From a virus, in IMG/VR virus record IMGVR_UViG_3300046804_001189, positions 1 through 22,948 of that record: DNA of 22,948 bases; one strand, given 5' to 3'. Below are positions 385 to 22,948 of this stretch, in pieces. Each line of letters opens with the position of its first letter. Position 1 is the stretch's first letter. The translations under genes were made by a program, and so were the position numbers. The notes beneath the pieces were generated by a model. It did not search any database. It saw only the letters and a program-made list of their open reading frames with translations, and was not told the origin of the DNA.

Positions 385-392
385 TATTTATC
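385..392 (-). promoter_or_regulatory. T4-late-type promoter box GATAAATA, 4 bases before the ATG
   Basis: The minus strand reads GATAAATA followed by TAAC and the ATG at 380. It matches the T4 late -10 element TATAAATA in 7 of 8 positions, and the N-A-T-A-A-A-T-A form reported for marine T4-like phages in full. It overlaps the terminase stop codon. The predicted start of transcription falls at or within the ATG, so the message would be leaderless. Confidence 0.55.
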
Positions 393-4983: not shown

Positions 4984-5991
4984 TTATCCGTTAGTAATGT
5001 TTAAATTTACTTGTTTGGCCACAACAGTATTATTATTTTGTTGTGCATTGACATTTACTTGAGGAAAACTAAATCCTTGTAATCCGCCAGTTTGTTGAGA
5101 TTGTACTGTTGTTAATATTTTATTTGAACCGCTATTTTGATTTTCTTTTGTGTTTAGATAGGTGTTAAGTTGACTTGATACTGTATTTGCTATTTCTTGT
5201 GCATTTAAAGACGAATTACCAATAAACGATGGACTTTCTTGTCTTGACCCATCACCAGGTTGTAAACTACTTGGAGTTTGATCATAATGTTCAAATGCAA
5301 ATCCTTCTGGATCGCCTACTGTTACAGTTCCGTTTCCGTAAGCTACTGCTTCGTATGCAATGCTCATACTAAAATCGTGAGGTGTGGTACTTTGTGCATA
5401 ATCTAATTTATTATGATTAAATGAACTAATGACAGGATTTAAAAGAGTGTAACTAACGTATTCGTGACGAGCCATTTGATATATTGTAATGTAGTTAAAA
5501 AATGGAGCAGTACTACCGTTATCTAAACCATAAGGGTTAGTAATAAAATTACTATTTCTAGTAGCATTGCGTTTGTATGCACTAGGATCTAAAGCACTTT
5601 TAGAATCAGCATAGTAATAACTGTAATAATTTTGCCATAATTGATTAATTAGGCTCATATTATCATCGTGGAACACAATATTCAATGCTTCATATTTGTG
5701 TGTTGATTGTATATTCTTTTTTCTGTTGTATTGATTAAGCGTATCTACAGTTACTTTAAATTGAGGCAAGTCACAACTTTTTACTAGAACATTAATTTCA
5801 TTTCTGTATCTTTGAACAAGGTCAATATTTTTTAAAGCTGACTGATTAATGCTAAACGCCACATGAAATAAAAACTTACTTTTAGGAGCAAGTCTAAATT
5901 GATCGTCTGTAAAGATACGAGCAGCATGAGCGTAATCTTTCAACGTCACGTTGCTTGGGCTGTATAAAAATTGATTAGGTGTGAATGCCAT
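4984..5991 (-). CDS. Tail-tube-fold virion protein (T4 gp54/gp19-like, likely baseplate tube initiator)
   Basis: The 335-residue protein is close to T4 gp54 in length (320). The pattern VLVKSCDLPQFKVTVDTLNQ (about 68-87), then NIQSTHKYEALNIVFHDD and NQLWQNYYSYYY, then an aromatic stretch with ITIYQMARHEYVSYTLLNPVI and a C-terminal domain YEAVAYGNGTV, is one I associate with tail-tube-like proteins of T4-like phages that nucleate tube assembly on the baseplate. Beyond about residue 235 the sequence is Gln/Asn/Ser-rich and likely flexible. It is preceded by a terminator, an inverted repeat and a late-type box only 5 bases from its ATG, so it starts a new transcription unit. It could instead correspond to gp48, or to a second tube subunit. 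Confidence 0.7.
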   Translation of the reverse strand: MAFTPNQFLYSPSNVTLKDYAHAARIFTDDQFRLAPKSKFLFHVAFSINQSALKNIDLVQRYRNEINVLVKSCDLPQFKVTVDTLNQYNRKKNIQSTHKYEALNIVFHDDNMSLINQLWQNYYSYYYADSKSALDPSAYKRNATRNSNFITNPYGLDNGSTAPFFNYITIYQMARHEYVSYTLLNPVISSFNHNKLDYAQSTTPHDFSMSIAYEAVAYGNGTVTVGDPEGFAFEHYDQTPSSLQPGDGSRQESPSFIGNSSLNAQEIANTVSSQLNTYLNTKENQNSGSNKILTTVQSQQTGGLQGFSFPQVNVNAQQNNNTVVAKQVNLNITNG

Positions 5992-5996
5992 ACAAA

Positions 5997-6004
5997 TATT
6001 TATC
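5997..6004 (-). promoter_or_regulatory. T4-late-type promoter box GATAAATA, 5 bases before the ATG
   Basis: The minus strand reads GATAAATA, then TTTGT, then ATG at 5991. There is no Shine-Dalgarno between box and start codon. It lies downstream of a terminator that ends the tail tube unit. Confidence 0.55.
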
Positions 6005-11218: not shown

Positions 11219-11247
11219 ACTATATAACAGTTTTATTACAAGGTCAA
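11219..11247 (-). promoter_or_regulatory. Sigma70-type promoter of the dNMP kinase gene
   Basis: On the minus strand -35 TTGACC (11242-11247) and -10 TATAGT (11219-11224) are separated by 17 bases. Each hexamer differs from consensus at one position. The -10 lies 22 bases before the ATG at 11196, leaving a short leader with a Shine-Dalgarno. This fits early transcription by host RNA polymerase of a nucleotide-metabolism gene. Confidence 0.6.
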
Positions 11248-12078: not shown

Positions 12079-12086
12079 GATAAATA
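12079..12086 (+). promoter_or_regulatory. T4-late-type promoter box GATAAATA of the gp14-like gene
   Basis: The plus strand reads GATAAATA, then TCATT, then ATG at 12092, with no Shine-Dalgarno. It matches TATAAATA in 7 of 8 positions. The expected +1 coincides with the A of the start codon. Confidence 0.55.
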
Positions 12087-15422: not shown

Positions 15423-15444
15423 AAAGGACCCGAAGGTCCTTTTT
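15421..15444. terminator. Bidirectional rho-independent terminator between Nudix and outer-membrane protein genes
   Basis: AAAAAGGACC (15421-15430) and GGTCCTTTTT (15435-15444) form a perfect 10-base-pair stem around a CGAA tetraloop. A U-run follows on either strand, so it can end both the plus-strand neck operon and the minus-strand iron/porin operon. Confidence 0.88.
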
Positions 15445-15461
15445 TATTGGGGATTGTTTGA

Positions 15462-16148
15462 TTAAAACTTATATGCATATTCAAAGATATAAGCGTCAGA
15501 CTTGTGCTGTCCGTTCTTGAAGTTCAAGAAACTTGGGCCGTCTGCTTCATATGCTTTTACATAACGCAATTCGATAGTGTGATGATCGTCAATGTTCCAG
15601 TTAGGTCCAATACGGAACTTGTTCTTATCATGTCCTGTTGTACCATCAATTGAACGAATCAAACGATATGACGCTGTCATTCCCCATTGCTTGTTAAAGT
15701 CATACTTCAAAGCTGGTTCCCAGTAAGCATAATTATAGTTGTCTTCGTTGCTCATAGAACGACCAACTAGGCCACGAACATAACCACCAAAGCCATTACC
15801 TAATGTAAAGTCTTTACGGATACGAACACCAACTTTAGTTTCAGTGGTGTTACCTGTTGTACCGTTCGACCACATTTTGTCTTGGTTGCCTTCTAGGTAA
15901 AGTTCAGCACGATTGATCCAACCGTCTTTCCACTGGATACCTGGCATTACTGCTAGGGCAGTGTTGGTGTTGTCGCTAGTTGCTGATTTTTCATATTCAT
16001 ACTCAAAACCAATACGTGGACGACCACCAAATAGTGTGTCTGCTTCTTTTACTTCTACTTTCTTACCGTCTGCGGTATAATACTCTCCTGCTTGTGCCAT
16101 CCCCATGACACTAGCTAACAGAGCAAATGCTAATAACAATTTTTTCAT
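15462..16148 (-). CDS. Secreted outer-membrane beta-barrel protein (small porin, KdgM-like layout)
   Basis: The 228-residue product has a classical signal peptide, MKKLLLAFALLASVMGMAQA, with cleavage likely after A20. The mature part is rich in alternating aromatic/polar strands (for example INRAELYLEGNQ, TKVGVRIRKDF, GGYVRGLVGRS, WEPALKYDFN, GMTASYRLIRSI, HTIELRYVKAYEA). It ends in Tyr-Lys-Phe, the C-terminal aromatic signal read by the BAM insertion machinery. Length and layout resemble 10-14-stranded narrow porins such as KdgM, but substrate cannot be told. The protein would sit in the host outer membrane. It is the last gene after the Fe(III) transporter genes, separated by a structured 129-base gap, with a Shine-Dalgarno AAAGGA about 8 bases before the ATG. 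Alternatives to uptake: masking or altering a phage receptor, or membrane permeabilisation. Confidence 0.85.
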   Translation of the reverse strand: MKKLLLAFALLASVMGMAQAGEYYTADGKKVEVKEADTLFGGRPRIGFEYEYEKSATSDNTNTALAVMPGIQWKDGWINRAELYLEGNQDKMWSNGTTGNTTETKVGVRIRKDFTLGNGFGGYVRGLVGRSMSNEDNYNYAYWEPALKYDFNKQWGMTASYRLIRSIDGTTGHDKNKFRIGPNWNIDDHHTIELRYVKAYEADGPSFLNFKNGQHKSDAYIFEYAYKF

Positions 16149-16277
16149 TTTATTTTCCTTTTGTTTTATGTAGAGAATTGTCTAATTCAATTCTCTGGGC
16201 ACTATATGCCAGTTAGTCTACAAAGCCGACCATGGCTGTAGACAGCAAGTCCCCACTTGCTGTCAAACTCTTTACTT
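16149..16277 (-). other. Structured intercistronic region: four inverted repeats end to end
   Basis: The gap between the binding protein stop and the porin start holds four potential hairpins. 16241-16264 has a perfect 10-base-pair stem with a 4-base loop. 16216-16243 has a 10-base-pair stem with a 2-base bulge, sharing three bases with the first. 16195-16212 has a 6-base-pair stem with one bulge. 16172-16196 has a perfect 9-base-pair stem with a 7-base loop. None is followed by a U-run, so a simple terminator is unlikely. A Shine-Dalgarno (AAAGGA) follows. Likely roles are mRNA stabilisation, differential expression or regulation of the porin. Confidence 0.65.
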
Positions 16278-17309
16278 TTATTTGCTGGCTTCTGTTAAGA
16301 TTTTAACAGCGACTTCACGATTTTTAGCAATAGCATCGGTGGCGATAAAATTCATTTTAGCGCGACCTTTTACTACACCAGGTTGCCCTTCGCCAAATCC
16401 TTGAACAATAACTGGCAATGGTTCACCGTCATCGATTGCAGGGTATTCAAAGTTTACCTGGGCTACAAATGTTTGGCCAATTGGGCTTAGAATAAAATCT
16501 GCTAGTTGTTGCGCTTCTTTATTATTCTTAGCACCTTTAAGGGCCGCCATGCCTGCAATTAGCGTATAAGGACCTTTACCTGTTTGATCTGGGAAGAACA
16601 AACGAGTCTTAGCCGCAAATGGACGCTGTGCGTTGTTGGACAGCATTAAGCCGTAGTAGTATGTGTTCATTAGGCTAATATCGCAAGTACCATTGGCAAC
16701 TAATTCACCTTGTTTGCGATCATTACCACTTGGCTTAACTGCTAGATTGTTAGCAACGCCCTGTACCCAATTACGAGCATAAGCTTCACCACGATCTGCA
16801 ATCATTTGACTTACTAGACTAATATTATAAGCATGAGTTAACGGACGCATACAAACACGACCTTTAAACTCTGGACTTGCTAAATCATCATAACCTCTAA
16901 GTTTAGTTACATCGACTTTTTCAGGGTTATAAACCATTGTGCGAGCACGATAGCTATAAGCAACATAGTCGCTATCTCGTAATTCTGGACGAATACTAGA
17001 TACTAGTTTGCTGTTTAGTGTGTTTGCAGTCCAACCGTTCTTTTTAGCTAATTCTAACACAGCTGCATCTGTAGAAATAATGATATCTGCTTCGCCTGGT
17101 TTTGATGTCAAACGAGCCGGAATGCCTCCTTCATCTACAAATACAGAATTGACTTTAACGCTAGTCTGCTGTTCAAATTGTTTAAAAAGTGGTTTTAAGT
17201 GAAAATCAGTACGATCACTGATTACGTTTACTTCTGCGGCTTGTGCTACTGCCGCGGTCATTACGATTACACACCCAATCAGGGCGCGAGCATTTCTTAA
17301 AATTGACAT
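16278..17309 (-). CDS. Periplasmic Fe(III)-binding protein of an ABC transporter (FutA/FbpA/IdiA-like)
   Basis: The 343-residue precursor has a signal peptide ending around A24 (VAQA, then AEVNV), so the mature protein is periplasmic. It has the two-lobed iron-binder pattern: first strand VNVISDRTDF, GEADIIISTDAA (72-83), the hinge region YSYRARTMVYNPEKV (118-132), RVCMRPLTHAYNISL (151-165) and CDISLMNTYYYGL (209-221). Tyr217-Tyr219 correspond to the adjacent tyrosines that bind Fe(III) in FbpA and FutA, and Y161 and Y118/Y120 are further candidates. C153 and C209 may form a disulfide. ADFILSPIGQTFVAQVNFEYP (270-290) is a typical C-terminal part. The usual His/Tyr pair after the first strand is replaced by SDRTDFH. 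The start has a strong Shine-Dalgarno (AGGAG, 9 bases upstream). It overlaps the ATPase gene by 95 bases. Confidence 0.9.
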   Translation of the reverse strand: MSILRNARALIGCVIVMTAAVAQAAEVNVISDRTDFHLKPLFKQFEQQTSVKVNSVFVDEGGIPARLTSKPGEADIIISTDAAVLELAKKNGWTANTLNSKLVSSIRPELRDSDYVAYSYRARTMVYNPEKVDVTKLRGYDDLASPEFKGRVCMRPLTHAYNISLVSQMIADRGEAYARNWVQGVANNLAVKPSGNDRKQGELVANGTCDISLMNTYYYGLMLSNNAQRPFAAKTRLFFPDQTGKGPYTLIAGMAALKGAKNNKEAQQLADFILSPIGQTFVAQVNFEYPAIDDGEPLPVIVQGFGEGQPGVVKGRAKMNFIATDAIAKNREVAVKILTEASK

Positions 17310-18219
17310 AGATTCTTTCTCCTATACTAATGTCCATATCTGCGTAAACCTCCACAGCGAGGGGCTTTTTGGTTCCATCGAGAACCACGGAGACCTTGAT
17401 ACTTGGTCCATCCCACTGGACCCCGGTCACCGTTGCGTTAAAGTCGGTTGGATTCTTAAAAGGAGGTTTCTTGATCTTGAACCACTCAGGTCGGACCATA
17501 CAAGGGTCTTCATTAGAGTGTAGATCAAAACTTTTAAGGTCTTTCCTATCTAACACGGTATAGTTGCCAAAGAAGTTGGCCATCCAAGGAGTAGTTGGTG
17601 TGTCATACAGTTGCTTGAACTTATTATGAGCTACAACTTCGCCTTGTTTGACTACTATGGCATATTCAAATAATCCATAAACTTGATAAAGTTCATGTGT
17701 TACTAGAATGGCAGTTTTATTTAGTTGTTTAAGTTTGTATAACAACTGTTTTAATGTTTTGCGAACTACAATGGGATCGATGCCTTGCATTGGCTCGTCC
17801 AATAATACAACATTTGCTGGGCTACAGACAGCTCGTAAAATGTTCACACGCTGGCTTTCACCACCACTTAATTCATGTGGATATTTTTCTAGCAAATGCT
17901 CGATTTTAAATAATTCTGCCCATTGTTCTAAATGTGAATTATCACCGCCTAACTCGATATTTTTGCGTACAGTAAAATTTGGCAATAATCTACCATCTTG
18001 CCAAGCCATACTAACACTTCGTTTTGGGCCGACTAGTCCGTTTACATTTACATTATCAATTATTACATCTCCGGCATATTCCTGTAAGCCGGCAAGACAG
18101 CGAAGCAAAGTAGTTTTTCCTGCTCCGCTAGGTCCTATTATAACTGTATGTGTGTTAATATCTAAATTAACGTTAGCCAGTTTAGGAATGTTAGAATTTA
18201 GATTTTTTATCTGTATCAT
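17215..18219 (-). CDS. ABC transporter ATPase, Fe(III) uptake type (FbpC-like)
   Basis: This 334-residue subunit energises import at the inner membrane. All ABC motifs are present: Walker A GPSGAGKT (29-36), Q-loop Q74, signature LSGGESQ (117-123), Walker B VVLLDE (137-142), D-loop GIDP (146-149) and switch His175 (VTHE). Residues beyond about 235 form a C-terminal regulatory (TOBE-like) domain, ending near DISIGERIYVNFKK as in FbpC/PotA-type ATPases. After that the reading frame runs on for about 20 more residues (SRPDWVCNRND...), which are encoded inside the start of the binding protein gene in another frame. I see no frameshift in the core. The start overlaps the permease gene by 29 bases. 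Confidence 0.92.
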   Translation of the reverse strand: MIQIKNLNSNIPKLANVNLDINTHTVIIGPSGAGKTTLLRCLAGLQEYAGDVIIDNVNVNGLVGPKRSVSMAWQDGRLLPNFTVRKNIELGGDNSHLEQWAELFKIEHLLEKYPHELSGGESQRVNILRAVCSPANVVLLDEPMQGIDPIVVRKTLKQLLYKLKQLNKTAILVTHELYQVYGLFEYAIVVKQGEVVAHNKFKQLYDTPTTPWMANFFGNYTVLDRKDLKSFDLHSNEDPCMVRPEWFKIKKPPFKNPTDFNATVTGVQWDGPSIKVSVVLDGTKKPLAVEVYADMDISIGERIYVNFKKCSRPDWVCNRNDRGSSTSRRSKRNQ

Positions 18220-19495
18220 ATATAAGTTTAATTATAACAGAACAAAGCACAATACCCAAACTTAAGATTACCAAACTATGCGGACCTAAGTTTGGTATTG
18301 CTTCTGACCGAGCAATATAATTCATACGCATGGCTAGTGTTTGAAAATTCATTGGTTGTAAGATCATGCTAATAGGCAACTCCCTAATAACATCTAAGAC
18401 AATCAGACAAACTCCTAACGCTACACTTGGAAGTACAATTCTTGCTTTGTCTAGAATTCTTTTTATTTTAGTTGGGGTATAAAAATCAATAACTTCAAAA
18501 TATCTTTGATTACCCTTGTCTGCTACTGAAACAGTATTAATCATCAGACCATAATATCTAAGTGTAATACCGATAGATAGTAATACAAATAAACTGACGT
18601 AAGGACCAAAGAAATACAATATTGTTGCGCCAATGACAGTTCCTGGCATGGCATAAAATCCTAACCCGCTGCGTTCTAAAAACTGTTTTCCTATGTTAGA
18701 AAAATATACAGCTGATACAGAAACACACATAATCACTACAACTATTGTCAAATATAAAGTGTTTAATAATTCTTTCAAAAAATCGTCTGCTTCAAATGTT
18801 GCTCCAGTAACAATCCATGCTAAAGAGGTATATACACCAAAGCCTATTAGCATAATAGTAGGTAATATAGCTAAAATAGCCCACAAGATTCTGGACTTGC
18901 TAGAATTATCTCCTTGTAAAGAAGTCGATGTTTTTAAATCTAGTTGACTTATAGCAATACCTAGTAGAGCTAATAGTGCTACACCCCACCATATCTGACT
19001 CATGTTCCAAGTTGACGTCCAGATATTATAGGTTAACATTGTTACAGTATTCAAACCATAGAAGTTACTAACGCCAAAGTCAGCAACACATTCAGCCGCA
19101 ATAATAGCAATACTAGGCAGTAGGCTCAATTTTAAACTAGGCCATATAGCAGTAAACAAGGATTTAAAGTTTTGTCCGTTTACTACAGTCATCATTTCCC
19201 AAGCCTTGTGTGCTCTATTGGCTAAACTTGCCGATACAATGCTATGTGGATAAACTGAACAGCAGACTCCTAGGCTAACACTAGCACCTAACCAAGGATT
19301 AATGTAACCAAACTCGCTGAGATAGTAAGATAATAACCACGGAGGGACGCCTAGTATTAACAAAGGCACATAATAGGCCCAAGTTTTATTTGACCACCAT
19401 GCTGATACAGCCGTCAAAGTGCCAATCGATATAGATATTATCGATGTAAAAATTATTAACAAGAAGGTTGATATAATCGAGTCAAACCAAAACAT
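18191..19495 (-). CDS. ABC transporter permease, Fe(III) uptake type (FbpB-like), short at the N-terminus
   Basis: The 434-residue integral membrane protein has about 10-11 hydrophobic segments in two halves, as in the fused FbpB permeases. The first half has the loop VVNGQNFKSLFTAIWPSLKL (about 103-122), in the position of the EAA motif that docks the ATPase. The second half carries a degenerate loop (FYTPTKIKRILDKARIVLP) and the conserved DVIRELPISMILQPMNFQTLA that is characteristic of iron permeases. Family members are usually 500 residues or more; here the first one or two membrane segments are missing, and an in-frame TAA two codons before the ATG rules out a longer start. There is no Shine-Dalgarno; the ATG lies 5 bases from a perfect -10 box. 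First gene of the iron operon. Confidence 0.85.
   Translation of the reverse strand: MFWFDSIISTFLLIIFTSIISISIGTLTAVSAWWSNKTWAYYVPLLILGVPPWLLSYYLSEFGYINPWLGASVSLGVCCSVYPHSIVSASLANRAHKAWEMMTVVNGQNFKSLFTAIWPSLKLSLLPSIAIIAAECVADFGVSNFYGLNTVTMLTYNIWTSTWNMSQIWWGVALLALLGIAISQLDLKTSTSLQGDNSSKSRILWAILAILPTIMLIGFGVYTSLAWIVTGATFEADDFLKELLNTLYLTIVVVIMCVSVSAVYFSNIGKQFLERSGLGFYAMPGTVIGATILYFFGPYVSLFVLLSIGITLRYYGLMINTVSVADKGNQRYFEVIDFYTPTKIKRILDKARIVLPSVALGVCLIVLDVIRELPISMILQPMNFQTLAMRMNYIARSEAIPNLGPHSLVILSLGIVLCSVIIKLIYDTDKKSKF
18231..18259 (-). promoter_or_regulatory. Weak candidate sigma70 promoter inside the permease 3' end
   Basis: The minus strand has a perfect -10 TATAAT (18231-18236), and 17 bases upstream TTGGGT (18254-18259), which matches the -35 only at TTG. 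It lies 12 bases before the ATPase ATG. It overlaps permease codons, so the match may be chance in AT-rich coding DNA. Confidence 0.25.
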
Positions 19496-19500
19496 AACTT

Positions 19501-19529
19501 ATTATATGCTATATTTTTGATTTTGTCAA
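19501..19529 (-). promoter_or_regulatory. Perfect consensus sigma70 promoter of the iron uptake operon
   Basis: The minus strand carries -35 TTGACA (19524-19529), a 17-base spacer and -10 TATAAT (19501-19506), matching the bacterial housekeeping consensus in all 12 positions with optimal spacing. The -10 ends 5 bases before the permease ATG, so transcription should begin on or next to the start codon, giving a leaderless mRNA. The -35 contains the stop codon of the oxygenase gene upstream. I see no convincing Fur-box palindrome over it. Confidence 0.85.
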
Positions 19530-20038
19530 GATAATTCTTCAAAATTACCAGCAATACTAATTCTAGTTTGGTTGCCGCGGTTCTTACTAACGCTATGATT
19601 CATCCATCCTGGAAAAATTACCAAATGGCTTTCTAACGGAGGTATGCTAAATCTGAATCTGTCTAAGAACCAAAATGTTAAGTCTCCTGCGCCTGGAGGA
19701 ACTTGAACATAATATACCCATGCAAATGGACTGGTGCCATGATGGTGTGTATTTGTACTTTCAAGAGGACGATGGATTTGCCCCCATTGACTGGCAGTAT
19801 ACATGTTTTTAGTTTTTGCTATTTCGTCTGCCATGGCAACTAATCGTTTGCTTTCGCTGCCGTCCGGTATTTCTAGTATACTATCTTCACTAAGGCCGCT
19901 GTTTGGATCTTTGCTTAGTCTATCATTAATATGTGCTAACACTTCTTCCGCTAGTTTTGCATTATCTAGCCCATCTAGTTTATACTGACGTGCTGTTAGT
20001 TCTAGTAGAGTAATGTCTTTAATAAATGTGTGTGTCAT
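19526..20038 (-). CDS. Putative non-haem Fe(II)/2-oxoglutarate oxygenase (2OG-FeII_Oxy_5-like)
   Basis: The 170-residue protein has the C-terminal double-stranded beta-helix signature of phage 2OG oxygenases: THHHGTSPFAWVYYVQVPPG (97-116), then HLVIFPGWMNHSV (138-150) and NQTRISIAGNF (156-166). Candidate iron ligands are H98/H100 and H148, and R159 would bind 2-oxoglutarate. The first ligand pair is H-x-H, not the textbook H-x-D. The substrate is unknown. The start overlaps the stop of the preceding oxygenase gene by 4 bases (ATGA), so translation is coupled. Its stop codon lies within the -35 box of the iron operon promoter. Confidence 0.75.
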   Translation of the reverse strand: MTHTFIKDITLLELTARQYKLDGLDNAKLAEEVLAHINDRLSKDPNSGLSEDSILEIPDGSESKRLVAMADEIAKTKNMYTASQWGQIHRPLESTNTHHHGTSPFAWVYYVQVPPGAGDLTFWFLDRFRFSIPPLESHLVIFPGWMNHSVSKNRGNQTRISIAGNFEELS

Positions 20039-20643
20039 CTTCTATTCATTCGTTGTAGAGAATAATGATCAACACCTAGTGCTTCTATAAAAAATACCAA
20101 AGTTAAACGTTCTTCATCCTGGAATGAATTAACTCCATGCCATAAGTGTCCGTCAAATGCTATCAATCTGTTAAACTTATTTTTTACTACAACAGATTCA
20201 TCAAAATGCGAATTATGTTCGTCCCTAACAGATGCAGGAAGGATTAATTTGTTATCTGGATCTGGATCGTTGTAGCTTAAATCTTTAGGTTGGTAGATAG
20301 TTGTACCAGAATCAAGCGAAGCATTCGGAGACAAGTATATTACTCCTGATATTAAATTAGGATCTCTATGTATCCATCCTTTTTCTGCTTTACTACTAAC
20401 TCTTTGAAAGTGTGCTTTTCCGTGCCAGCCACGAATTTGACCAGTAGTATGAAATAACGCAAGGTATCTTTCAATTGTAGACTTAAACAAATTTAAATTT
20501 AACTCATGTAACGGAGCAGAACGTTCTCCCGGCCAGAGATTTTCAGGATCGGATTCATACTTTTGTTTAAGAGCAAATTCTCTTACTGCTAATGGATCTT
20601 CAAAGAAGTTATCAACTACAGTTACAGGTGTAAGATATGTCAT
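20035..20643 (-). CDS. Putative Fe(II)/2-oxoglutarate oxygenase-like protein with H-x-D motif
   Basis: The 202-residue protein shows GWIHRDPNLISGVIYLSP (89-106) with H92-x-D94, and FDGHLWHGVNSF (163-174) with H169 as third ligand, then R179 in ERLTLVFFIEA as candidate 2-oxoglutarate anchor. This is the order expected in a cupin-like 2OG-Fe(II) oxygenase. The N-terminal part starts with a typical VVDNFFEDPLAVREFALKQ helix that I recall from phage and environmental oxygenase-like proteins. The substrate is unknown; possibilities are proteins, nucleotides or small molecules. It overlaps both neighbours by 4 bases in a three-gene oxygenase operon. Confidence 0.75.
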   Translation of the reverse strand: MTYLTPVTVVDNFFEDPLAVREFALKQKYESDPENLWPGERSAPLHELNLNLFKSTIERYLALFHTTGQIRGWHGKAHFQRVSSKAEKGWIHRDPNLISGVIYLSPNASLDSGTTIYQPKDLSYNDPDPDNKLILPASVRDEHNSHFDESVVVKNKFNRLIAFDGHLWHGVNSFQDEERLTLVFFIEALGVDHYSLQRMNRR

Positions 20644-21218
20644 TTTAAGTTTATAGCAATACTAATGCGTTCATGATTTGTGTTGTTGACATTTACTCTG
20701 TGAGTAAGCCAACTTGGAAATAATAACAATCTTCCTGTTTTTGGTTTGTATGATATTGATTCGCTTGGCATTCCGTCTGATGGAAATCCATTAAAATGTA
20801 TGTAAGGATTTGGATTCTGAAATCTTATAGCACCGTCGTCTTCGTTTGCACTCACGTAGTATACTCCACTAATGCGTGAACCTGCATGGACATGGTCGTA
20901 TTGAAAACTTCCCTTATTAGAAAAATTAAACCAGCTTTCGTATATACTAAATCCTGGACCGTTATAGCCGATAGATTTAGTATATTCATCTATTGCAGAT
21001 AAAATCATAGATTTAAAATTAGCTAAGTTATGCGTTTCTATGTCGTTAGTGCCTTGAAAATTAAATGTAGTATTTACAGCATCACCCCACGGGCTCAATT
21101 CGCTAGACTGTTTTATCACATTTAATGCCGTTGATAGTTCGTTTTGGATTATTTCCAAATTATCACCAGTTAGTTCGTGTGCAAATATAGGAGTAGGAAA
21201 CCAGTTTTCTGTAGGCAT
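20640..21218 (-). CDS. Putative Fe(II)/2-oxoglutarate oxygenase (2OG-FeII_Oxy_5-like)
   Basis: The 192-residue protein has the family layout in full: a start WFPTPIFAHEL, a middle Y-E-S-W-F segment (93-97), YDHVHAGSRISGVYYVSA (107-124) with H109/H111, then GRLLLFPSWLTHRVNVN (162-178) with H173, and HERISIAINL with R184. The first ligand pair is H-x-H. It is the first gene of a three-gene unit read from a perfect TATAAATA box 4 bases before the ATG, with no Shine-Dalgarno. Function beyond the oxygenase fold is unknown; such proteins are frequent in marine phage genomes. Confidence 0.82.
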   Translation of the reverse strand: MPTENWFPTPIFAHELTGDNLEIIQNELSTALNVIKQSSELSPWGDAVNTTFNFQGTNDIETHNLANFKSMILSAIDEYTKSIGYNGPGFSIYESWFNFSNKGSFQYDHVHAGSRISGVYYVSANEDDGAIRFQNPNPYIHFNGFPSDGMPSESISYKPKTGRLLLFPSWLTHRVNVNNTNHERISIAINLK

Positions 21219-21222
21219 GCGA

Positions 21223-21230
21223 TATTTATA
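21223..21230 (-). promoter_or_regulatory. Perfect T4 late promoter box TATAAATA of the oxygenase operon
   Basis: The minus strand reads TATAAATA, then TCGC, then ATG at 21218, an 8 of 8 match to the T4 late consensus. It lies 2 bases from an opposed plus-strand box, so the two oxygenase units are transcribed divergently from a 28-base gap. Confidence 0.65.
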
Positions 21231-21232
21231 GG

Positions 21233-21240
21233 TGTAAATA
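21233..21240 (+). promoter_or_regulatory. T4-late-type promoter box TGTAAATA of the plus-strand oxygenase gene
   Basis: The plus strand reads TGTAAATA, then CGTCAC, then ATG at 21247. It matches TATAAATA in 7 of 8 positions, the same variant as before the terminase gene. No Shine-Dalgarno is present. Confidence 0.5.
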
Positions 21241-21246
21241 CGTCAC

Positions 21247-21792
21247 ATGAAAATTTTAGAAAACTTAATAAGCCTACCAGATTGTCAATTCTTAACCAAT
21301 GTAATCAATGCCGCGTGGCTATCTGCCAAAATGAAGTTTCCAGGTAAAAAACTTGGAGATAATCTAGTTGCGGAATCTTTCAGCGCATACGCATTACCCG
21401 AAACTGATGATTTGCTGTGGCATTTAACTAGACGTGTTGCCGAGGAAACTGGTAAACGTTTAGTACCGACTTATAGTTATTGTCGAATCTATCATAAAGG
21501 TGCAATTTTGCCATTACATCAAGACAGAGAATCGTGCGAATATTCAATCAGTCTTAAAGTTAGTGGTGATGATTGGCCAATTTGGTTTAATGTAGACGGT
21601 CCTAAAGAGCTTGTGCTACCAAACGGCACTGGTGTGTTGTATAAGGGATTAGATACTCCGCATTGGAGAGAACGATTTACAGGCAATACATGTATTCAAG
21701 TATTCTTTCACTGGGTTGACGCCAACGGTCCGTACGCAGAATGGCGTTATGATAAACGTCCTTACTTAACCCAGCTTACAGTCCCACGCTAA
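21247..21792 (+). CDS. Putative Fe(II)/2-oxoglutarate oxygenase-like protein (prolyl-hydroxylase-type layout)
   Basis: The 181-residue protein has YSYCRIYHKGAILPLHQDRE (76-95) with H91-x-D93, a strand SISLKVSGDDWPIWFNVDG, then GTGVLYKGLDTPHWRERF (127-144) with H139 as third iron ligand and R141/R143 nearby, and a final FFHWVDANGPYAEWRYDKRP. The arrangement R-x-Y...H-x-D...H...R fits a 2OG-Fe(II) oxygenase of the prolyl-hydroxylase type. It differs clearly from the Oxy_5-like neighbours. It is the only plus-strand gene in this block and converges on the next oxygenase gene, overlapping it by 27 bases at the 3' ends. Substrate unknown. Confidence 0.75.
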   Translation: MKILENLISLPDCQFLTNVINAAWLSAKMKFPGKKLGDNLVAESFSAYALPETDDLLWHLTRRVAEETGKRLVPTYSYCRIYHKGAILPLHQDRESCEYSISLKVSGDDWPIWFNVDGPKELVLPNGTGVLYKGLDTPHWRERFTGNTCIQVFFHWVDANGPYAEWRYDKRPYLTQLTVPR

Positions 21793-22344
21793 CACTCGCC
21801 TAGTACCGGTACCTTGCCATGGATACACTTGATGTGGCAACCAACTAGGAAATATTAACATCATTCCTACCGCTGGTTTTATATGAGCAAATTGAACATG
21901 ACTTGGGTTAGGTGATTGGCCAAATTGAAAACTAATACAACAATCTGTTTCTGCACTATTAGGATTTAGGTCGGGTACTTCTAAATATAAATTTCCAGAA
22001 ATGTCCCCATTAGGATGTGTATGTGTAACTTGATAACTGTTTGCTGGCTGAGTTATTGTCCAACAGTTTGCAAGTTTAGGAGTTAATTTTGCATATTCTT
22101 GCGACTGTGTATAATATTCAAGAGCGTGTTGTTCAATCCACTCACTAAGCCACTGTCTATCTTCAGCGGATGGCAATACTCTACGCTGTTCACCACCACG
22201 GAGTGTTAAATCGCTGTATGGATAATCTATGCTAGTTGCTGAGGTTTTAAATAAGTCTACACTTAGCTGGTTTATTTTTGATAATACATCAGCAGGAACA
22301 TAAACTTTAGCAATAGCAATAGGATTAAAAAACTTAATGTCCAT
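21766..22344 (-). CDS. Putative Fe(II)/2-oxoglutarate oxygenase (2OG-FeII_Oxy_5-like)
   Basis: The 192-residue protein contains YQVTHTHPNGDISGNLYLEV (104-123) with H108/H110, MMLIFPSWLPHQVYPW (161-176) with H171, and TGTRRVLAWDC (179-189) with R182/R183. The first ligand pair is H-x-H, as in two of its neighbours. It overlaps the end of the halogenase gene by 11 bases on the same strand, so the two are likely co-translated and may act together. Its 3' end overlaps the convergent plus-strand oxygenase gene. Substrate unknown. Confidence 0.8.
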   Translation of the reverse strand: MDIKFFNPIAIAKVYVPADVLSKINQLSVDLFKTSATSIDYPYSDLTLRGGEQRRVLPSAEDRQWLSEWIEQHALEYYTQSQEYAKLTPKLANCWTITQPANSYQVTHTHPNGDISGNLYLEVPDLNPNSAETDCCISFQFGQSPNPSHVQFAHIKPAVGMMLIFPSWLPHQVYPWQGTGTRRVLAWDCKLG

Positions 22345-22948
22345 ATTTGTTCTTTAAAAACTCATATAGTGTTGGTTCATCTTTAGCAACATCGTTCCAG
22401 TAGGCTTTTTTCTTTTCAAAGATAGCAAAACTTTCTGCGTATTTGTCTTTATAATCTTCTTCATCACGTAATTGTTCATAGGCAATTGTAATAGGATCTA
22501 AAATAGGATAATTCATACCTGTACTAATACGTGTAATGCCGCCATCTAATGATGCAGTACCTGTGAACATTTTTCTATGTTGTAAATCGTAAAATCCGTG
22601 GAAACTTTGTGGCTCCATGCTAACCATTCCTGGGCTGTATGTGCGTGAACCGTTGGCTTTCCAATAGTCTGAGTCGTCTCTGATACTAAGTGCATAGTGC
22701 TGTGCTACAAATTCTGAGAAATTTCTAAAAATTTGTAAGGTAGCAGAGTTATAAACATCAATGTCCCATTGTGTTACCGCTGGACGTTGTAATGTTTTAA
22801 CTAATTTAAACAAGAATTCATGCACACTAAACAAGCCATTAGATTCTAATGGTTCAATAAATCCTGCACTAAGTCCAATGGCTACGCAATTTTTAACCCA
22901 TGTACGTTTATGAATACCTACACGCATTGGAACATCTTTAAATTCAAG
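22334..22948 (-). CDS. Flavin-dependent halogenase, tryptophan halogenase type (C-terminal part; start outside window)
   Basis: The minus strand is open to the window edge, giving 204 C-terminal codons plus stop; the in-frame ATG at 22927 is internal to conserved sequence and not the likely start. The segment WVKNCVAIGLSAGFIEPLES is the FAD-side signature of PrnA-type tryptophan halogenases (family pattern W-V-K-N-C-V-A-I-G-L-S...F-x-E-P-L-E-S-T). The N-terminal GxGxxG FAD motif and the W-x-W-x-I-P halogenation motif would lie outside, so activity cannot be judged. Such enzymes use FADH2, O2 and halide to chlorinate or brominate aromatic substrates; phage members have unknown targets. The gene overlaps the following oxygenase gene by 11 bases. 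Confidence 0.88.
   Translation of the reverse strand, partial: LEFKDVPMRVGIHKRTWVKNCVAIGLSAGFIEPLESNGLFSVHEFLFKLVKTLQRPAVTQWDIDVYNSATLQIFRNFSEFVAQHYALSIRDDSDYWKANGSRTYSPGMVSMEPQSFHGFYDLQHRKMFTGTASLDGGITRISTGMNYPILDPITIAYEQLRDEEDYKDKYAESFAIFEKKKAYWNDVAKDEPTLYEFLKNKYGH

What the first reader, a model, noticed from the sequence alone, without database searches (positions are those of the whole stretch)
19501..19529. Perfect consensus bacterial promoter drives the iron operon and should give a leaderless mRNA
TTGACA, 17 bases, TATAAT is a 12 of 12 match with best spacing, rare even in bacteria. The box ends 5 bases before the permease ATG and there is no Shine-Dalgarno, so +1 must be at or next to the A of ATG for the gene to be translated from this transcript. 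The promoter appears independent of the phage late system and possibly of iron repression (no clear Fur palindrome). It suggests strong early expression by host RNA polymerase of an uptake system that escapes host control.
Basis: partly seen in the sequence, partly recalled or inferred. Interest (0 to 1): 0.78.

Follow-up and report, generated by a model that had tools for sequence, protein, structure and literature searches.

The report
Leaderless promoter of phage iron operon
A giant T4-like phage has a perfect bacterial promoter five bases before an iron-uptake operon, so the messenger RNA should begin at the start codon itself; comparison with related phages shows that this layout recurs across many phage genes and is not an accident.

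Summary
Confirmed: the - strand at 19529-19501 reads TTGACA-17-TATAAT (12 of 12), the only one in the window (about 0.013 expected). It ends 5 bases before the permease ATG (19495), with no Shine-Dalgarno and no Fur box. The start codon is right, because homologues begin at the same residue. The operon encodes an iron ABC transporter: permease, ATPase and FbpA/FutA-type binding protein. The window belongs to a PA5oct-like jumbo T4-type lineage. Five sister contigs carry 67 perfect promoters; controls carry none. So the box is rare in bacteria but standard in these phages. Its distance to ATG is bimodal: 21-35 nt with Shine-Dalgarno, or 5-6 nt without. Across viral contigs, TATAAT-N5-ATG opens a gene in 52 of 120 cases with a perfect -35 box, but in 2 of 61 without one (P 1e-9). 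Such genes at gaps 5-7 form 65 protein families, including PA5oct's exonuclease. Late-type NATAAATA boxes show the same layout. Best reading: a host-RNA-polymerase, early-class, leaderless promoter inside a late-gene module. Early timing, translation and escape from host control are inferred, not shown.

The parts
19524..19529 (-). -35 hexamer TTGACA (contains the TGA stop of the upstream 2OG-oxygenase gene)
19507..19523 (-). 17-bp spacer AAATCAAAAATATAGCA; no extended -10 TG
19501..19506 (-). -10 hexamer TATAAT; its TAA (19504-19502) is an in-frame stop for the permease frame, so the gene cannot start upstream
   Evidence: frame read directly from the sequence
19496..19500 (-). 5-nt discriminator AAGTT; no Shine-Dalgarno
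19495..19495 (-). predicted transcription start (+1) = A of the permease ATG
   Evidence: inferred from -10 spacing; gap profile
18191..19495 (-). permease of an iron ABC transporter, 434 aa
   Evidence: homologues 49-53%; profile matches 9j4r iron ABC permease, E 2e-7, over nearly the full length; no Pfam family
17215..18219 (-). ABC transporter ATPase (overlaps the permease end)
   Evidence: (ABC_tran 1.5e-26)
16278..17309 (-). periplasmic ferric-iron-binding protein, FbpA/FutA type, with NTYYYG motif; has its own SD TAGGAG
   Evidence: (7li0 E 7e-50, 2pt1, 1q35)
15462..16148 (-). outer-membrane beta-barrel protein, last gene of the module
   Evidence: weak OMP_b-brl
19526..20038 (-). upstream 2OG-Fe(II) oxygenase; ends inside the -35 box
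21223..21230 (-). late-type box TATAAATA 4 nt before the ATG of the 2OG gene 20640-21218; possible source of read-through
11219..11247 (-). positive control: sigma70 promoter TTGACC-17-TATAGT of the dNMP kinase gene, conserved in about 40 sister loci with SD
12079..12086 (+). late-type box GATAAATA 5 nt before ATG, no SD (virion gene)
5997..6004 (-). late-type box GATAAATA 5 nt before ATG, no SD (tail-tube-like gene 4984-5991)

Best explanation
The 29 bases are a genuine host-RNA-polymerase (sigma70-type) promoter. It starts a leaderless mRNA at the A of the permease ATG and so drives the permease-ATPase-iron-binding-protein(-porin) operon. It belongs to what is probably the early promoter class of this PA5oct-like jumbo phage lineage, which uses perfect -35/-10 boxes with either a 21-35-nt leader carrying an SD or a 5-7-nt gap with none. 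Here such a promoter sits inside a virion/2OG-oxygenase module whose other genes carry T4-type late boxes. The transporter would therefore be made by unmodified host polymerase from the start of infection, with ribosomes binding the 5'-terminal AUG directly. Shown: the sequence, lineage-wide enrichment, gap- and -35-dependence, start-codon conservation. Inferred: start site, timing, translation, physiological role.
For: 12/12 box, about 0.013 expected per window. 67 perfect boxes in five sister contigs (about 699 kb) against 0 in reversed-pattern controls and about 0.03 expected per 100 kb. Bimodal gap to ATG: 42 of 59 at 21-35 nt and 8 at 5-6 nt, of which one (MLRKLAY...) is doubtful. The same gene is leaderless in G006/G007 (MTKRTARKDSNY..., gap 6) and leadered in G008 (MRRKTRVDCNY..., gap 26, SD). 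The dNMP kinase is leadered in about 40 sister loci and leaderless in L162 (gap 5). TATAAT-N5-ATG opens an ORF of 60 aa or more in 52/120 with perfect -35 against 2/61 without (P 1.5e-9); N6 37/49 against 13/55 (1.7e-7); no excess at gaps 4, 8 or 10. 98 proteins in 65 families at gaps 5-7. Exonuclease built this way in PA5oct and three other phages. Start codon conserved.
Against: No transcript data. The gap of 5 is one short of the modal 6, so some initiation could fall at the G of ATG and be unproductive. The promoter has no close homologue: the two other viral iron operons have different upstream regions (G002 permease overlaps clpS; G001 has TGATATAAT with a hairpin leader and a poor -35). 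Only 1 of 67 sister promoters lies within 10 kb of this module. The spacer lacks the TTTGGGCT-like pattern seen in many sister promoters. In three other sister contigs no perfect box was found. The gap-5 sample was fetched by pattern, and its loci come from mixed phages of unknown hosts.
Confidence: 0.74

Rival explanations
1. The promoter is real, but the permease is mainly translated from read-through transcripts of the upstream 2OG-oxygenase operon (late box TATAAATA at 21230-21223), by reinitiation 30 nt after the oxygenase stop; the leaderless RNA is minor.
For: No terminator between the oxygenase and permease genes; late box in front of the 2OG genes; same strand, overlapping genes.
Against: A read-through RNA has no SD for the permease, and its predicted fold pairs the AUG with the -10/spacer region (though no better than shuffles, z -0.7). 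Agreement between 12/12 boxes and gene starts at gap 5 is far above control.
Confidence: 0.13
2. The promoter mainly supplies the downstream genes (ATPase overlap, binding protein and porin with their own SD); starts at the 7th-8th base leave the permease AUG truncated, so permease translation is inefficient.
For: Modal gap in related phages is 6, not 5; the 7th and 8th bases after the box are T and G; the binding protein has a good SD.
Against: An initiating A lies at the 6th base; gap-5 sites open genes in 43% of cases against 3% in controls, so gap 5 is used.
Confidence: 0.07
3. Chance: the 12/12 match has no function.
For: Look-elsewhere expectation 0.04 per window for 16-18-bp spacers; in the 773 kb of structural-region sister loci only 4 were seen with about 1.4 expected (extrapolated).
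Against: It stands directly before an operon start whose permease has no other start signal; sister phages use identical boxes in numbers that chance cannot give; opening of genes depends on the -35 box.
Confidence: 0.04
4. The operon is a late gene set: the one-mismatch late box CAAAAATA, 16 nt before the ATG, is the real promoter and the sigma70 match is incidental.
For: Late boxes with gaps of 16-18 nt occur in these phages; sister cargo genes (DUF401) at the same slot carry NATAAATA plus a hairpin leader and SD.
Against: The box departs from NATAAATA; the gap-17 late gene in the window has an SD, this one has none; one-mismatch hits are common in AT-rich DNA.
Confidence: 0.04

Closest known systems
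Leaderless phage genes: lambda cI from PRM; PY54 cI and cro
   Same: sigma70 promoter immediately upstream of the start codon; mRNA begins with AUG (RACE for PY54, PMC4488713; lambda cI cited there)
   Different: those are repressor genes of temperate phages; here a metabolic operon of a jumbo T4-type phage, with a perfect consensus and no operator found
Leaderless (TA-led) genes of bacteria, e.g. Deinococcus (PMC3160421, PMC12340547)
   Same: -10 box about 10-12 bp before the start codon, no SD
   Different: those usually have TANNNT and often no -35; here both hexamers are perfect and the -35 is what separates real sites from chance
Early promoters of T4-type phages
   Same: host sigma70 polymerase, near-consensus boxes, strand-clustered regions
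   Different: leadered with SD as a rule; a leaderless minority is described here
T4-type late promoters (NATAAATA)
   Same: present in the window and also placed 4-5 nt before ATG without SD
   Different: no exact late box lies in front of the permease
FbpABC / FutABC ferric-iron ABC transporters
   Same: binding protein of the FbpA/FutA family with Tyr-rich motif, ATPase, iron permease match
   Different: about 33% identical to the bacterial binding proteins found, 53-70% to two other viral operons; no Fur box; linked to a beta-barrel gene

Membership tests
sigma70 consensus promoter | TTGACA, 16-18 bp, TATAAT | tested here: met
   12/12, 17 bp
sigma70 consensus promoter | more than chance, used by relatives | tested here: met
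   0.013 expected per window; 67 perfect sites in five sister contigs, controls 0
sigma70 consensus promoter | RNA start 6-9 nt downstream of -10 | not testable with these tools
   needs 5'-end mapping
Leaderless gene | -10 box 5-7 nt before a verified start codon | tested here: met
   gap 5; start conserved in homologues
Leaderless gene | no Shine-Dalgarno | tested here: met
   AAGTT only, then the -10 box
Leaderless gene | mRNA 5' end at the start codon, translated | not testable with these tools
   comparative support only
T4-type late promoter | NATAAATA upstream | tested here: not met
   best is CAAAAATA, 1 mismatch, gap 16
Fur-regulated iron promoter | 19-bp Fur palindrome over or near the promoter | tested here: not met
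   best 11/19, 82% of shuffles as good; E. coli-type consensus only
FbpABC iron transporter | FbpA-type iron-binding protein | tested here: met
   7li0 E 7e-50, 2pt1, 1q35; NTYYYG kept
FbpABC iron transporter | iron permease and ATPase in one operon | tested here: met
   permease profile to 9j4r E 2e-7; ABC_tran
FbpABC iron transporter | iron transport activity | not testable with these tools
   no assay

The most novel reading that the evidence does not exclude
Leaderless mRNAs are a systematic expression class in T4-type jumbo phages, built on both host-sigma70 promoters and phage late promoters, and exchangeable with leadered versions of the same gene. They might let chosen genes be translated by 70S ribosomes when initiation is otherwise limiting, and the phage has used this class to put a captured iron-uptake operon under early expression, independent of host regulators, within a late module.
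Probability: 0.4. Interest if true: 0.75.

Novelty: new member of a known kind. Interest (0 to 1): 0.52.

Why it matters
Leaderless phage mRNAs are known mainly from a few repressor genes. Here the geometry recurs in 65 protein families of viral contigs and in a cultured, annotated phage (PA5oct gp244 exonuclease; probably also the primase, GTG at gap 6), so it can be tested at once by 5'-end mapping in an existing phage-host system. It also gives a concrete case of a phage placing a nutrient-uptake operon under a host-polymerase promoter and not under the late class that governs the surrounding module.

Tried and rejected
(1) I first took TATAAT in sister L022, at the same distance after the oxygenase gene, as a conserved -10. 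Rejected: in L022, L031 and L084 it lies inside a leader hairpin (GCACTATAATTATAGTGC, followed by T6, in L031 and L084) after a late box and before an SD. (2) Global enrichment of near-consensus boxes in the structural-region loci: none for one mismatch (19 against 41 in the reversed control), so the claim rests on perfect boxes and whole contigs. (3) Fur box: none above chance. (4) Stable 5' RNA structure: none in the leaderless form (z +1.07). (5) Permease fold: AlphaFold with two sequences failed (pLDDT 34) and is not used; the PDB profile search served instead. (6) Bacterial donor of the operon: best binding proteins only about 33% identical, so no donor or host can be named. (7) Permease in the phage genome collection: no match. 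(8) A DNA alignment and a translation were set up with wrong coordinates and are ignored. (9) Paper searches gave no report of this operon in the held library.

Full report
What is there. The - strand at 19529-19501 reads TTGACA-AAATCAAAAATATAGCA-TATAAT. It is the only 12-of-12 site in the window. A dinucleotide model expects 0.013 such sites with a 17-bp spacer in the whole window, and about 5e-5 in a given 60-nt upstream region. The box ends five bases before ATG 19495. The -35 hexamer overlaps the TGA of the upstream 2OG-oxygenase gene, and the -10 hexamer itself supplies an in-frame TAA, so the permease cannot start further upstream. The start is confirmed by homology: window MFWFDSI, G002 MIWFWAV, G001 MIWIDSI.

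What it drives. The three genes are an iron ABC transporter. The binding protein matches FbpA/FutA-type iron-binding proteins of known structure (best E 7e-50) and keeps the NTYYYG motif. The ATPase is a plain ABC ATPase. The permease has no Pfam match, but its profile matches an iron ABC permease of known structure over nearly its full length (9j4r, E 2e-7). A beta-barrel gene follows. Only two other viral contigs carry relatives, and bacterial binding proteins found are about 33% identical.

What phage it is. The terminase and sheath are closest to PA5oct, MIJ3 and Atu_ph07, that is, jumbo T4-type myoviruses. The nudix neighbour has 512 relatives in viral contigs; 80 were fetched. The interval between the 2OG cassette and nudix is an exchangeable slot: iron transporter here, DUF401 transporter plus porin in L022, L031, L044, L084 and (without a detected porin) L079, another 2OG gene in L023, nothing in L024.

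Is the promoter class real? Yes. Five sister contigs hold 11, 15, 18, 17 and 6 perfect boxes (67 in about 699 kb), three hold none, and the reversed pattern occurs nowhere; about 0.03 per 100 kb would be expected. A phage contig that carries the same operon (G001) shows all 18 of its 0-1-mismatch boxes on one strand. The dNMP kinase gene, also in the window (11247-11219), has a conserved promoter TTGACC-17-TATACT with SD in about 40 sister loci. Hence a perfect box is rare in bacteria but ordinary for these phages. What is unusual is its place: only 1 of the 67 lies within 10 kb of the nudix module.

Is it leaderless? In the sister contigs the distance from box to ATG is bimodal: 42 of 59 at 21-35 nt, nearly all with AAGGAGCG-like SD, and 8 at 5-6 nt without SD, of which one is doubtful. 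One gene occurs both ways: gap 6 without SD in G006 and G007, gap 26 with SD in G008. The dNMP kinase is leadered in most sisters and leaderless (gap 5, 12/12) in L162. In a collection-wide scan with gaps of 1-20, ATGs that open an ORF peak at gap 6 (14 of 16). The control that matters: TATAAT-N5-ATG opens an ORF of at least 60 aa in 52 of 120 cases with a perfect -35 and in 2 of 61 with none (P 1.5e-9); at gap 6, 37 of 49 against 13 of 55 (P 1.7e-7); gaps 4, 8 and 10 show no excess. This is the range in which the A of ATG can be the first transcribed base. The cases at gaps 5-7 are 98 distinct proteins in 65 families. One family is an exonuclease found leaderless in PA5oct (gp244, gap 7), G006, L197 and L322, which speaks for selection. 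Related sequences are not fully independent, and hosts are unknown.

Late boxes. NATAAATA, the T4-type late motif, lies 4-5 nt before ATG in 43 distinct contexts, 42 of which open an ORF (10 families), and 16-20 nt before ATG in others; the window has four of the first kind (12079+, 21230-, 6004-, 392-). No exact late box stands before the permease; the nearest is CAAAAATA at gap 16. In PA5oct, late boxes usually lie 21-37 nt upstream.

Regulation. No Fur-like site above chance. Read-through from the TATAAATA box of the 2OG genes is possible because no terminator intervenes. In such an RNA the AUG can pair with the -10/spacer region, but no more stably than shuffled sequence.

Known background. 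A -10-like signal about 10-12 bp upstream of the start codon is the accepted signature of leaderless bacterial genes (PMC3160421; PMC12340547). PY54 cI and cro are leaderless by RACE from strong promoters (PMC4488713), and phage transcripts are said to be often leaderless (PMC5312081). T4 late promoters have a -10-like element and no conserved -35 (PMC7892883). The element is thus a new member of a known kind; the lineage-wide two-format use of it, and its use for an iron operon, are what is new here as far as the held library shows.

Verdict. Observation confirmed. Leaderless host-polymerase promoter: likely (0.74). Early timing and escape from host control: inference only.

Noticed in passing
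window 15423-19525; L022, L023, L024, L031, L044, L079, L084: The interval between the 2OG-oxygenase/halogenase cassette and the nudix gene is an exchangeable cargo slot: iron transporter + porin, DUF401 transporter + porin, another 2OG gene, or nothing.
   Followed up: partly
L031 and L084 upstream of DUF401 (ATG at L031:4657-, L084:8139-): Late box NATAAATA followed by a perfect palindrome GCACTATAATTATAGTGC, T6, and AAGGAG: a leader hairpin or attenuator in front of the cargo gene.
   Followed up: no
window 12079-12086 (+), 5997-6004 (-), 385-392 (-), 21223-21230 (-): Late boxes GATAAATA/TATAAATA lie 4-5 nt before ATG without SD: late virion genes also look leaderless.
   Followed up: yes
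G003, G006, G007, G008 promoter clusters (L371, L373, L379, L380): Many perfect promoters share a spacer pattern such as TTTGGGCT and an extended -10 TGC; it may bind a factor.
   Followed up: no
NC_071039.1 145855-145889: PA5oct DNA primase: perfect promoter with an annotated GTG at gap 0 and a second GTG at gap 6, so the true start may be the second one, leaderless.
   Followed up: partly
L005 and L002: Two other large phage contigs carry the same iron operon: in one after clpS (permease ATG overlaps clpS), in the other after an SLH-type porin with TGATATAAT and a GC hairpin leader.
   Followed up: partly
window 19526-22927: Several 2OG-Fe(II)-oxygenase genes and a tryptophan-halogenase fragment adjoin the iron operon; the oxygenases need iron.
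   Followed up: no
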